IMG/VR virus record: IMGVR_UViG_3300036944_001289
Span: 1 to 64,000 of that record
DNA length: 64,000 nt
Source of the DNA: a virus
Direction: 5' to 3' (one strand)
Shown: positions 1 to 47,556 of the stretch, piece by piece
Layout: each line of letters starts with the position of its first letter
How positions within the stretch are numbered: the first letter of the stretch is position 1
Notes under the pieces: generated by a model
Databases searched by the model: none
Seen by the model: only the letters and a program-made list of their open reading frames with translations
What the model was told of the DNA's origin: nothing
Made by a program: the position numbers and the translations under genes

Positions 1-310
1 ACAGACCCCGGCATAACCAGAGACCCAGGCTTTACCATAGACCTCGGCATTACCACAGACCTTGGCATTACCATAGACCATGGCATTACCAGAGACCCTG
101 GCATTATCACAGACCAAGGCATTACCATAGACCTCGGCATTACCACAGACCTTGGCATTACCATAGACCATGGCATCACCATAGACCTCGGCATCACCGG
201 AGACCCAGGCTTTACCAGAGACCTCGGCATTACCATAGACCATGGCATTACCAGAGACCTTGGCATCACCATAGACCTCGGCATCACCGGAGACCTCGGC
301 ATTATCATAG
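1..310 (-). repeat. 18-bp tandem repeat array inside the hexapeptide gene
   Basis: About 17 consecutive 18-bp units are visible, such as atagacctcggcattacc on the plus strand, each encoding six residues on the minus strand. Units differ mainly at the codons for the variable residues, so the array is protein-driven rather than a non-coding satellite. Confidence 0.9.
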
Positions 311-441
311 ACGAAACAATCTCCTTCTTGGGAGAGGTTGGATTCAGTCTGAATCCAACCTCCGACAAGGTCATCGGAAATGCGCCGGATTTGTTTCAGG
401 CCGTTTTTTTCTTTACCAGTAAATTCGTATTTCTTTTTCAT
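1..441 (-). CDS. Hexapeptide-repeat (GNAxV) protein, 3' end outside window
   Basis: The frame opens with ATG at 441 (overlapping the TGA of the upstream exonuclease gene as ATGA) and stays open to the window edge. After about 40 residues it becomes a run of six-residue repeats of the type GNAEVY, GDAKVS, GNAMVY, written in DNA as 18-bp tandem units over positions 1-310. Repeats of this kind form left-handed beta-helices. In phages they occur in proteins of unknown role and in tail-associated proteins. No catalytic domain is visible in the part present. It is the last visible gene of the 2.5-0.4 kb overlapping cassette. Confidence 0.8.
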   Translation of the reverse strand, partial: MKKKYEFTGKEKNGLKQIRRISDDLVGGWIQTESNLSQEGDCFVYDNAEVSGDAEVYGDAKVSGNAMVYGNAEVSGKAWVSGDAEVYGDAMVYGNAKVCGNAEVYGNALVCDNARVSGNAMVYGNAKVCGNAEVYGKAWVSGYAGVC

Positions 442-15096: not shown

Positions 15097-15138
15097 AAAA
15101 AAAGGTGGCAGGGCCCGCTACCTCGCGAATGCCCTGCC
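15097..15138 (-). terminator. Terminator of the permuted tRNA-like RNA
   Basis: Stem GGCAGGGC/GCCCTGCC with a 16-nt loop, followed on the minus strand by CACC and seven T. It ends the RNA that begins behind the gene at 15452. Confidence 0.85.
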
Positions 15139-15451
15139 TGTTGTCATATTTTCATAATATGTGACAAAGAGCGTTTTTTAGCTCTGTTCTTTAAAATGCT
15201 TTGTGTTTTTAGCTTAATACCAGCACTCTACCACTAAGTTACCTGACCATATATACTAACCGGAAATTGGGGGTCAGGAGCTGATTTGAACAGCCGCATC
15301 TGGTTTAAATAGACACTATCTTTTAAAGAACCTTCTTAGTCGGGTTTTGAGCCTCGAGTGAATAGCCTTAGTTTGAACTTGAGCATGACCGGTTTAGACC
15401 CGGATTTCACTTTGAGCCTGGATACTCCCGAAGGAGCCACCCGAAATTGTT
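15139..15451 (-). ncRNA. Circularly permuted tRNA-like RNA with structured flanks
   Basis: On the minus strand a tRNA 3' half comes first: anticodon-stem strand ACCAG (15300-15304), T-arm (15279-15295), acceptor CCTGACC (15272-15278), then C and CCA. A 19-nt spacer follows, then the 5' half: acceptor GGTCAGG (15242-15248), D-arm ACTT-AGTGGTA-GAGT, and CTGGT (15219-15223). Acceptor (7 bp) and anticodon (5 bp) stems pair perfectly across the halves, and an 11-bp helix (15321-15331 with 15186-15196) extends the anticodon arm. The upstream 100 nt fold further (TCGGGT/ACCCGA, CTCC-TTCG-GGAG, CCGG/CCGG). Gene order matches two-piece tmRNA, but there is no G3-U70 pair and no tag frame. A true one-piece tmRNA lies at 41.1 kb. 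Confidence 0.75.
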
Positions 15452-16192
15452 TTAGTTGAAGATATAGCTAATCAACTTAGCACCGATCTTCTTATTCTTA
15501 TCGACCTCGGTATCGTTAGCACGAGAACGGGCCTGCTTAACTGCACGAGTCAAAGTATCAACTCGACTAAGATACTCAGACTTTTGCGCAGGAGTAATAA
15601 GACCAGACCACTCTTGCTCTTGAATATTACCGATAACCTTGTCTTCATCAACAAGCTGAGTCTGGGCAGGGTGCTTGTCGGTCGCAGGATATAGAACGAT
15701 TACTGACTTTTCCTTCTTCGTACGAGTCTTATTAATTGTACGGGCTTGATAGATACCACCACCACGAGCAGCATCATGTGTAAATCCTTTAGCAGGGTCG
15801 AGAGTAGGAATAGAAAGGATTAAAGAATTAATCTCAATTAGACGCTTCTCAAGTTCAAGAAGAGCGGTAGCAGGTACATCCTTAGCAATTACAGTGCCAT
15901 CTTCAAGAGTAATATCACCGCGAGCTGCAGTATTAGTTTCAGCAACCTGATACGAAGCATCGAGAGCCTTGGTAATAAACCCAGCAATAAGCTTCAATTC
16001 CTTATCAACAGTGGTCTGAATATCAAGCTGAGACTCGACCGTTGACTGACCTTCACCGGAAGGTGTAAATACAATCTTCTTCTCTTCGAAGAGATGACGC
16101 TTCTTTTCAAAGGTCGTGGCGAGTTCGTTACGTACCTTGTTTGTCTGATTTTCGAGAGAATTCTCGACTGCGAGTAGTTCGTGTAGCTTCAT
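15452..16192 (-). CDS. Conserved-type protein of unknown function, 246 aa
   Basis: The start MKLHELLAVENSLENQ, the central ARGGGIYQARTINKTRTKK and the segment VLYPATDKHPAQTQLVDED match a family I recall as widespread in phages and bacteria without known function. The N-terminal 50 residues and the C-terminal 60 are helical and probably coiled. The RNA gene at 15.1-15.4 kb follows its stop directly and is probably in the same transcript. A GGAAC motif lies 41 nt upstream. Confidence 0.75.
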   Translation of the reverse strand: MKLHELLAVENSLENQTNKVRNELATTFEKKRHLFEEKKIVFTPSGEGQSTVESQLDIQTTVDKELKLIAGFITKALDASYQVAETNTAARGDITLEDGTVIAKDVPATALLELEKRLIEINSLILSIPTLDPAKGFTHDAARGGGIYQARTINKTRTKKEKSVIVLYPATDKHPAQTQLVDEDKVIGNIQEQEWSGLITPAQKSEYLSRVDTLTRAVKQARSRANDTEVDKNKKIGAKLISYIFN

Positions 16193-42406: not shown

Positions 42407-42493
42407 TGGTGCGTCGGGAGGGACTCGAACCCTCGATGGGTTTAAACCGTGAGCTTAAAAGGCTCGACCTTTCGCCGCTAAGGGAACCGACGC
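42407..42493 (-). tRNA. tRNA with class II arm, anticodon TTT by position
   Basis: Acceptor GCGTCGG/CCGACGC, A73, CCA, anticodon stem CGAGC/GCTCA with loop CTTTTAA. The variable region is long (CGGTTTAAACC hairpin), which is not expected for Lys. Identity therefore unsure. Confidence 0.7.
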
Positions 42494-42502
42494 GTAAAAA
42501 AC

Positions 42503-42640
42503 TAAGTATATTTTTTGCGTTTACTGTGCTACCGTTACACTACTCTCCAATAAAGTATAAATTGGGTGGAGAGGTGGGAATTGAACCCACACTAGCATCT
42601 GTATATGATGATTGCGTTTTATTTTTGCTGTATATACTTA
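42503..42640 (-). ncRNA. Permuted tRNA-like RNA enclosed by the CAGCAA element
   Basis: Closed by TAAGTATAT (42632-42640 on the minus strand) and ATATACTTA (42503-42511). The 3' tRNA half comes first: T-arm GTGGG-TTCAATT-CCCAC (42574-42590), acceptor CTCTCCA, C73, CCA (ends 42563). A 13-nt spacer precedes the 5' half: TGGAGAG (42543-42549), TA, D-arm GTGT-AACGGTA-GCAC (42526-42540). The acceptor pairs over all 7 bp. An anticodon-arm-like CATC-ATATACA-GATG precedes the T-arm. Just inside the closing stem is CAGCAA, shared with three small RNAs in the array. Confidence 0.65.
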
Positions 42641-46113: not shown

Positions 46114-47556
46114 TTAATTAAACTTTCCGATACCGTATAGAGCATTATTTGTTTTATATATGTATATACCGCTAAATTGTGTACTATTTTTATTACTTGT
46201 AGCACATAAATTATTTACTTGTGTAGATGATATGTAAACTGTATTTGTACCAATATTTGTTATTCCCACGTTAAATCCGTTTGGCAAGATACCTGGAAAG
46301 ATTGCTGATATTGATCCAGATGCAGTGTTAAAGTTGAATATCTTAGAGTTGTCTGCAGAATAGCTAAATGTTTTAGTGGTTGTTATATTGGTTACGTTTA
46401 CGTCAGATATAACCTCTCGTGCTGTTAATGTATTTATATTTGCATTAGCAGCTGTTATTACACTTACATTTGCATTAGTAGTTGTTAGATTATTGGTATC
46501 TACAGATGAAGCTACTAATCTATTTATATTTGCATCAAATGCTGTCAAACCTTTAGATGAAACACCTATACTATACGTATTACCGTTTACAAAAATAGTA
46601 TATGTTACATCTGTTAGTTCTGATAGTGTTGTGGTATCAAATAATGTTGGTCCATCTATATATATTTGGCCATCTTGAAGATTATATGCATTTGCACTAA
46701 TTTTAGGTGAAAACCTATTATATCCGTTCCATTCTAAATCCCTTCCTACATTTATATTAGTTGCTGTAAGTGTCTGAGCGGATAGACTTTTTACATTTAT
46801 ATTAGTTGCTGTAAGTGTCTGAGCGGATAGACTTTTTACATTTATATTAGTTGCTGTAAGTGTTTGGGTAGATAAATTGTTAGTAATTGTAGTGCCGCTT
46901 AATACAGGATTTAAAATTGGTGCTTTGAGAGCTAATTGCTCTGTTGTTGCTAAAGTACCACTTTCAGTTGGGAGAGTAACTACGACATTACTATTTGCTG
47001 AACCATATAATTCTGTGACATTAAGTCCAAGCCTTATACTTAATATATCAGCCTGTCCATATAGAGATAAAAAATTGGTCAATACTGCCGGTGTGTAAAC
47101 GCTACTTAATGCAATTACTTCACCATCTACTGTAAGGGTTTGAGCAGATAGGCTCCTTACATTTATATTAGTTGCTGTAAGTGTTTGGGTAGATAAATTG
47201 TTAGTAATTGTAGTACCGCTTAATACAGGGTTCAGAATTGGTGCTTTGAGAGCTAATTGATCTGTTGTTACTAAAGTACCACTTTCAGTTGGGAGAGTAA
47301 CTTCAACACTACTGTTTGCTGAACCATATAATTGAGTAGCATTAAGACCTATTTGGGCAGTTAAAAACTGAGCCTGACCGTATATTTGTATAAGCCCGGC
47401 CTGAACAACACCACTTACAACAGCGCTACCTGGTATATAAAGCGTATTAAATGTAACATCATCATTAGCTCCAACCCCAAGGTTAGTGCGCGCTGCAGCT
47501 TTATTAGCTGCTTGCATAAAGTTATCGATATCTTGAGATACAATTACATCGGACAT
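46114..47556 (-). CDS. Repeat-rich tail fibre protein, 480 aa
   Basis: The N-terminus (DIDNFMQAANKAAARTNLGV, then NDDVTFNTLYIPG) is typical of phage fibre attachment regions. The shaft has a duplicated block of about 55 residues (LPTESGTL, LALKAPILNPVLSGTTITNN) followed by 15-residue repeats SAQTLTATNINVKSL. A beta-rich tip follows. The start lies in a 20-bp inverted repeat shared with the opposite strand. Probably a host-recognition fibre. Confidence 0.78.
   Translation of the reverse strand: MSDVIVSQDIDNFMQAANKAAARTNLGVGANDDVTFNTLYIPGSAVVSGVVQAGLIQIYGQAQFLTAQIGLNATQLYGSANSSVEVTLPTESGTLVTTDQLALKAPILNPVLSGTTITNNLSTQTLTATNINVRSLSAQTLTVDGEVIALSSVYTPAVLTNFLSLYGQADILSIRLGLNVTELYGSANSNVVVTLPTESGTLATTEQLALKAPILNPVLSGTTITNNLSTQTLTATNINVKSLSAQTLTATNINVKSLSAQTLTATNINVGRDLEWNGYNRFSPKISANAYNLQDGQIYIDGPTLFDTTTLSELTDVTYTIFVNGNTYSIGVSSKGLTAFDANINRLVASSVDTNNLTTTNANVSVITAANANINTLTAREVISDVNVTNITTTKTFSYSADNSKIFNFNTASGSISAIFPGILPNGFNVGITNIGTNTVYISSTQVNNLCATSNKNSTQFSGIYIYKTNNALYGIGKFN
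46748..46866. repeat. 45-bp tandem repeats in the fibre gene
   Basis: Two complete and one partial copy of a 45-bp unit (15 codons) at 46748, 46793 and 46838. The first two are near-identical, implying recent expansion. Confidence 0.85.
46843..47330. repeat. Long direct repeat in the fibre gene
   Basis: About 165 bp at 46843-47010 recurs with few changes at 47163-47330, including ttgagagctaattg and actttcagttgggagagtaa. Encodes the duplicated shaft block. Confidence 0.75.

What the first reader, a model, noticed from the sequence alone, without database searches (positions are those of the whole stretch)
15139..15451. Circularly permuted tRNA-like RNA gene with its own terminator
A tRNA 3' half with CCA lies upstream of the matching 5' half. 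Acceptor (7 bp) and anticodon (5 bp) stems pair perfectly across the permutation, an 11-bp helix extends the anticodon arm, and a rho-independent terminator follows. The order resembles two-piece tmRNA, but G3-U70 and a tag frame are absent and a normal tmRNA exists elsewhere in the window. Permuted tRNAs are known from a few algae and archaea (established knowledge). A phage version would be new to me.
Basis: partly seen in the sequence, partly recalled or inferred. Interest (0 to 1): 0.88.

Follow-up and report, generated by a model that had tools for sequence, protein, structure and literature searches.

The report
Permuted tRNA-mimic RNA beside DUF7873
Next to a gene of unknown function, this phage carries an RNA that folds like the top half of a tRNA with its two halves in swapped order, and the same gene-RNA pair recurs in 32 of 33 loci checked, in distantly related phages and some soil bacteria, so it looks like a widespread, undescribed RNA-protein partnership rather than an odd tRNA gene.

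Summary
The permuted tRNA-like RNA is real. It lies on the minus strand: 3' half with CCA (15304-15268), 19-nt linker, 5' half (15248-15219), rho-independent terminator (15138-15097). It is not an isolated oddity. It sits directly downstream of a DUF7873 gene (15452-16192). One or two such permuted modules follow DUF7873 in 26 of 27 loci first examined (Rhizobium, Vibrio, Arthrobacter, Gordonia, Rhodococcus, Klebsiella and Pseudanabaena phages, uncultured phages), and in 6 of 6 loci added later as a test, four of them actinobacterial replicons. RNAalifold on 16 homologues returns exactly the permuted core: 20 pairs, 19 with compensatory changes. N-CCA is kept in 23 of 26 modules. It is probably not a permuted tRNA gene: the anticodon stem is 4 bp (fifth pair random), and the place of the anticodon holds a conserved track of UNA triplets every six bases, repeated in the 5' domain (z=16; held-out z=7). 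It is not tmRNA: G3-U70 in 1 of 26, full D-stem, no conserved frame. Its closest kin is YrlA, the Ro60-bound Y RNA that is also a permuted tRNA mimic, but the Ro-type motif of phage Y-RNA arrays is absent. Function is inferred, not shown.

The parts
15452..16192 (-). DUF7873 gene (246 aa), invariant upstream neighbour and proposed protein partner
   Evidence: Pfam PF25283, E 8.7e-68; AF2 pLDDT 86.5 but no significant fold match
15354..15444 (-). 5' domain closed by helix TCGGGTGG (15444-15437) / TCACTCGA (15361-15354), containing hairpin CTCC-TTCG-GGAG and a UNA hexamer track
   Evidence: Own-partner helix mean 7.19 bp versus 5.95 (max 6.94) with partners swapped among homologues
15365..15388 (-). 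UNA-NNN hexamer track (TCATGCTCAAGTTCAAACTAAGGC)
   Evidence: UNA at spacing 6: 97 pairs versus 21.0 +/- 4.7 in shuffles over 26 loci; held-out loci z 7.3
15321..15331 (-). 5' strand of the 11-bp helix GTTCTTTAAAA, pairs with 15196-15186
   Evidence: Present in the sequence; not recovered by the consensus fold
15300..15304 (-). 3' strand of the anticodon-like stem (ACCAG)
   Evidence: Pairs 1-4 kept in 26, 26, 25, 23 of 26 modules with many pair types; pair 5 random
15279..15295 (-). T-arm GGCTG-TTCAAAT-CAGCT
15268..15278 (-). Acceptor 3' strand CCTGACC + C73 + CCA
   Evidence: N-CCA in 23 of 26 modules
15249..15267 (-). Linker between CCA and the 5' half (19 nt); expected to be cut out by RNase P and 3' processing (inferred)
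   Evidence: Variable in length and sequence among homologues
15219..15248 (-). tRNA 5' half: acceptor GGTCAGG, TA, D-arm, G26, stem strand CTGGT
15209..15217 (-). UNA track TTA-AGC-TAA where the anticodon would be
   Evidence: U33 14/15, A35 15/15, U39 15/15, A41 12/15 in the single-module group
15186..15196 (-). 3' strand of the 11-bp helix TTTTAAAGAAC
15097..15138 (-). Rho-independent terminator
   Evidence: Stem-loop plus T7 run
42480..42620 (-). Second, separate permuted module (T-arm GTGGG-TTCAATT-CCCAC, acceptor CTCTCCA, C73-CCA, linker, TGGAGAG-TA-D-arm) inside the tRNA cluster
   Evidence: relation to the first module unknown

Best explanation
This is a member of an undescribed family of structured RNAs made as a pair with DUF7873. 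SHOWN by sequence: the core is a circularly permuted tRNA mimic (T-arm, 7-bp acceptor with CCA, D-arm, 4-bp stub of an anticodon stem); in the single-module group the anticodon is replaced by UNA triplets every six bases, which also fill a helix-closed 5' domain; the gene order DUF7873 -> RNA is kept from phages to actinobacterial replicons. INFERRED: the RNA is transcribed from the DUF7873 direction to its terminator; RNase P cuts before the acceptor 5' strand and 3' trimming exposes CCA, leaving two pieces held by the acceptor helix, as in two-piece tmRNA; DUF7873 binds the hexamer track; the resulting RNP presents a tRNA elbow and CCA end without an anticodon. Most likely use: it occupies or redirects a tRNA-handling enzyme during infection, for example as a decoy for host tRNA nucleases or as an adaptor, the role suggested for YrlA's tRNA-like domain. 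My split: DUF7873-linked tRNA-mimic RNA family 0.9; DUF7873 binds the RNA 0.65; two-piece processing 0.5; decoy/adaptor role 0.3.
For: Permuted modules directly downstream, same strand, in 26 of 27 DUF7873 loci and 6 of 6 held-out loci, none found elsewhere in the held-out loci. Covariation of the core from an unconstrained alignment and of the 5' domain helix. UNA period-6. CCA kept. No conserved frame. DUF7873 single-copy in all 20 records searched. YrlA precedent: PMC7790460 reports that its tRNA-like domain is not cut by an anticodon nuclease and may inhibit it. Several carriers also encode long tRNA arrays.
Against: No expression, processing or binding data. The fold searches give no significant match for DUF7873, so RNA binding rests on synteny and the repeats. 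C73, common here, is an unusual discriminator base. Some modules lack CCA (both Pseudanabaena phages). The Microcoleus phage locus (L033, partial genome) shows no permuted module. The UNA pattern was first seen in the same data, though the held-out set repeats it; it is weak in several loci (L017, L018, L030, L032, L051).
Confidence: 0.6

Rival explanations
1. It is a bacterial Y RNA of the YrlA type, bound by a Ro60 (TROVE) protein of phage or host.
For: YrlA has the same permuted order; sub-threshold YrlA hits to several of these RNAs (32-37 bits). TROVE is encoded in 4 of 19 DUF7873 phage records, 0.5, 1.5 and 6 kb from DUF7873 in three, against 80 of 50,697 phage records by tblastn (a less sensitive search).
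Against: No TROVE in the window's record or in 15 of the other 19 records. The motif GYGUAG-N-RUUACUUC of phage TROVE arrays occurs 0 times in 15.6 kb of DUF7873 RNA regions versus 1-5 times in each TROVE array. The window RNA gave no YrlA hit at E<=10. In the G003 and TM30 records separate Ro-type RNAs lie by TROVE.
Confidence: 0.15
2. A true circularly permuted tRNA gene: the two halves are joined at the anticodon loop (ligase or permuted self-splicing intron) to make a decoding tRNA.
For: CCA, canonical T- and D-arms, perfect acceptor; in the window a 5-bp anticodon stem and U33.
Against: Fifth anticodon pair random, 4-bp stem only, conserved UNA track in place of the loop; no group I intron or other Rfam match; no RtcB in the 209-kb record.
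Confidence: 0.06
3. A divergent two-piece tmRNA for ribosome rescue.
For: Same piece order and CCA; two-piece tmRNA is known in phages (PMC9004378).
Against: G3-U70 in 1 of 26, complete D-stem; no reading frame kept open; a normal tmRNA in the window; no tmRNA model hit to the window RNA.
Confidence: 0.06
4. A cis-acting element: processing or decay signal at the 3' end of the DUF7873 mRNA, or an autoregulatory binding site of DUF7873, rather than a free RNA.
For: Always downstream on the same strand; no promoter-like site between gene and RNA in the window.
Against: In L008, L010, L018 and L020 it is separated from the gene by about 150 to 350 nt; an elaborate tRNA core with CCA exceeds the needs of a 3' UTR signal.
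Confidence: 0.13

Closest known systems
YrlA, bacterial Y RNA (Rfam RF02553)
   Same: Circularly permuted tRNA mimic: T-arm, acceptor, D-arm in that order, stem in place of the anticodon arm; linked to a protein partner
   Different: Partner gene is DUF7873 rather than Ro60; acceptor ends in N-CCA with a linker in 23 of 26 modules, while phage TROVE-linked modules mostly lack CCA and are closed by short loops; Ro-type motif absent; UNA hexamer track present; below the YrlA threshold
Two-piece (permuted) tmRNA (RF04321, RF01849-RF01851)
   Same: Piece order, CCA end on the upstream piece, removable linker
   Different: No G3-U70, full D-stem, no tag frame, no tmRNA model match
Permuted tRNA genes of algae and archaea
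   Same: 3' half upstream of 5' half with perfect acceptor pairing
   Different: No anticodon stem-loop to restore; no ligase evidence; conserved non-tRNA track instead

Membership tests
YrlA / bacterial Y RNA | Permuted tRNA-like module (T-arm, acceptor, D-arm) | tested here: met
YrlA / bacterial Y RNA | Rfam covariance score over gathering threshold (69 bits) | tested here: not met
   No hit for the window RNA; best DUF7873-linked relative 37.1 bits
YrlA / bacterial Y RNA | Ro60-binding motif as seen in phage TROVE arrays | tested here: not met
   0 hits in 15.6 kb; 1-5 per TROVE array
YrlA / bacterial Y RNA | Ro60/TROVE gene in the genome | tested here: not met
   None in the window's record, which may be incomplete; 4 of 19 related records have one
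YrlA / bacterial Y RNA | Physical binding to Ro60 | not testable with these tools
   Needs an experiment
tmRNA (one- or two-piece) | G3-U70 alanine identity pair | tested here: not met
   1 of 26 modules
tmRNA (one- or two-piece) | Tag reading frame with stop | tested here: not met
   No frame open in all homologues (2, 5 and 3 of 15 open)
tmRNA (one- or two-piece) | Reduced D-arm without stem | tested here: not met
   D-stem pairs 1-3 in 26 of 26
Permuted tRNA gene | Halves in swapped order with complete acceptor, T- and D-arms | tested here: met
Permuted tRNA gene | Anticodon stem of 5 bp and 7-nt loop after joining | tested here: not met
   Fifth pair 8 of 26, at chance; UNA track instead
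Permuted group I intron-exon gene | Group I intron core around the exons | tested here: inconclusive
   No match at E<=10, but a permuted core could escape the linear model
DUF7873-linked RNA family (proposed here) | DUF7873 directly upstream, permuted core, UNA hexamers | tested here: met

The most novel reading that the evidence does not exclude
DUF7873 and this RNA form a new kind of ribonucleoprotein: a protein that multimerises along a UNA hexamer track and displays an anticodon-less, CCA-ended, two-piece tRNA mimic, unrelated to Ro60-Y RNA and to SmpB-tmRNA, used to capture or redirect a tRNA-handling enzyme in infection.
Probability: 0.35. Interest if true: 0.92.

Novelty: new variant of a known kind. 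Interest (0 to 1): 0.8.

Why it matters
It gives a protein family of unknown function a specific candidate RNA partner and adds a second, apparently Ro60-independent class of permuted tRNA mimics, spread from jumbo phages to Streptomyces replicons yet unannotated in the records examined. It makes testable why phages rich in tRNA genes keep tRNA-like RNAs that cannot decode, and whether circular permutation is a general route to a tRNA mimic that keeps the elbow and CCA while losing the anticodon.

Tried and rejected
Group I permuted intron-exon: no match and no restorable anticodon loop. Ordinary tmRNA: features fail. RtcB ligase in the record: none. Cas7-like backbone for DUF7873: the first AF2 model's top Foldseek hits were Cascade Cas7 (E 0.02, TM 0.12-0.18), tempting with a 6-nt period, but the second model did not reproduce them, so dropped. 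Peptide encoded by the hexamer track (alternating K-hydrophobic in one frame): frame not kept among homologues. Whole-RNA consensus structure beyond the core: RNAalifold found none; only the 5' domain helix held up in a separate test. DNA similarity to named phages: no match. Papers on DUF7873: none; papers naming permuted tRNAs and phage together gave nothing on a phage-encoded permuted tRNA in titles or abstracts, and most subscription papers are not held. The genome-contig scan gave one further locus (L051, a Verrucomicrobia bin), which carries the RNA too. The Chen 2014 YrlA paper and the Sim 2020 Ro60 review could not be read here.

Full report
OBSERVATION. The feature lies on the minus strand between a 246-aa gene (16192-15452) and a phosphoribosyl pyrophosphate synthetase gene (15033-14167; phrog_619). 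Reading 5'->3': a structured 5' domain, the tRNA 3' half ending in CCA at 15268, a 19-nt linker, the 5' half starting at 15248, further stem-loops, and a terminator ending in T7 at 15097. The window is part of a 209,282-bp virus record. ARAGORN does not report it, and no Rfam family reaches even E=1 there. The whole interval folds better than shuffles (z -3.8).

RELATIVES. No named phage matches at DNA level, so I went through the neighbouring gene. It is DUF7873, PF25283, E 8.7e-68, without a match in PHROGs or NCBIfam and absent from the held literature. Relatives at 50-63% identity in uncultured phages, 73 named phage records (a spread of them fetched), a Verrucomicrobia bin and four actinobacterial replicons were examined downstream of the gene. 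A permuted module follows in 25 loci by script and in L009 by eye (its T-loop is TGCAATT); the partial Microcoleus record L033 is the one exception. Actinophages, Klebsiella FBKp24 and the Pseudanabaena phages carry two modules in a row. None of the modules is annotated as such in the named records; FBKp24 has a 'suppressor tRNA' call overlapping its second module. A scanner for the permuted order gives about one hit per 266 kb of resampled sequence. In six loci fetched afterwards as a test, all six had one or two modules within 900 nt downstream, and none upstream or on the other strand.

STRUCTURE. An unconstrained MAFFT alignment of 16 single-module RNAs gave, in RNAalifold, exactly the permuted core and nothing else: 4 pairs of the anticodon-like stem, 5 of the T-arm, 7 of the acceptor, 4 of the D-arm; 19 of 20 pairs show changes on both sides. 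Across 26 modules (25 DUF7873 loci plus the second window module) the acceptor pairs fully, but acceptor pairing was part of the search, so the independent evidence there is the anticodon-like stem, kept at pairs 1-4 in 26, 26, 25 and 23 modules against 11-16 in shuffles, while pair 5 is at chance (8 of 26). N-CCA follows the acceptor in 23 of 26. A 5' domain helix (CGGGTG/CACCCG in many, TTGGGT/ACCCAA or TCTAGT/ACTAGA in others) is longer with its own partner (mean 7.19) than in any of 200 partner swaps (mean 5.95, max 6.94).

HEXAMER TRACK. In the region before the module, UNA triplets recur every 6 nt: 97 pairs at spacing 6 (shuffles 21.0, sd 4.7) and 65 at 12, other spacings at or near chance. 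The pattern was seen in these data first; the held-out loci repeat it (15 versus 2.8, sd 1.7). In the single-module group it continues where an anticodon would be: U33 14/15, A35 15/15, U39 15/15, A41 12/15. No reading frame through it is kept open. A repeat of fixed period next to a dedicated gene suggests a protein track; that is inference.

WHAT IT IS NOT. A decoding permuted tRNA needs an anticodon arm; relatives lack one. A tmRNA needs G3-U70, a reduced D-arm and a tag frame; all three fail. YrlA is the closest architecture. As a positive control I examined phages with a TROVE gene: Xanthomonas Olaya, CcrColossus, Brevundimonas Gurke and Rhizobium TM30 carry arrays of permuted tRNA-like modules near TROVE (crAss001 has related tRNA-like elements in normal order), scoring up to 50 bits with the YrlA model, mostly closed by short loops and accompanied by GYGUAG-N-RUUACUUC. 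That motif is absent from 15.6 kb of DUF7873 RNA regions. Yet TROVE genes occur in 4 of 19 DUF7873 records, close by in three, so the two systems keep company and may share a pathway.

PARTNER PROTEIN. AlphaFold2 gives a confident model (pLDDT 86.5 and 84.4 for two members) with helices and a long beta-hairpin; there is no significant structural match in the PDB or viral libraries. An early resemblance to the crRNA-binding Cas7 was not reproduced and was dropped.

MECHANISM. Best guess: the transcript is cut at both sides of the linker by tRNA-processing enzymes, exposing CCA and leaving two pieces held by the acceptor helix; DUF7873 coats the UNA track; the particle presents a tRNA elbow and CCA without an anticodon and so engages tRNA enzymes without decoding. 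A decoy against tRNA nucleases fits the tRNA-rich carriers and the suggestion made for YrlA (PMC7790460), but nothing here tests it. Identity of the family is well supported; function is open.

Noticed in passing
window 42480-42620 (-): A second permuted tRNA-like module with CCA inside the tRNA cluster, between tRNA-Leu(taa) and tRNA-Lys(ttt), without DUF7873 beside it. No third found in the remaining 145 kb of the record.
   Followed up: partly
L057 1780-2490, L058 1400-2475, L059 1460-2475, L052 5300-6510: Phages with a TROVE/Ro60 gene carry unannotated arrays of permuted tRNA-like Y RNAs with a repeated GYGUAG-N-RUUACUUC hairpin, all below the YrlA threshold of Rfam.
   Followed up: partly
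L071-L074: DUF7873 with two permuted modules on Nonomuraea and Streptomyces replicons listed as plasmids.
   Followed up: partly
L012, L014, L017, L018 downstream of the permuted module: A second tRNA-like element in normal order, without CCA, with differing anticodons (CAT, TGT, TCT), before the terminator.
   Followed up: no
L059 5857-6202: A permuted tmRNA over its Rfam threshold (57.7 bits, threshold 47) in Brevundimonas phage Gurke, unannotated in the record.
   Followed up: no
window 3-312 and the far end of the 209-kb record: An 18-bp tandem repeat (AGACCTCGGCATTACCAT) at the contig start and similar repeats at its end; the assembly probably broke in one repeat array.
   Followed up: no
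window 46747-46863: A perfect 45-bp tandem repeat, 2.6 copies.
   Followed up: no
terminator hairpins of the DUF7873 RNAs (window 15125-15118 and homologues): Terminator loops look alike in several homologues (CGNGGTAG or CGTGCTAG), more than a terminator needs.
   Followed up: no
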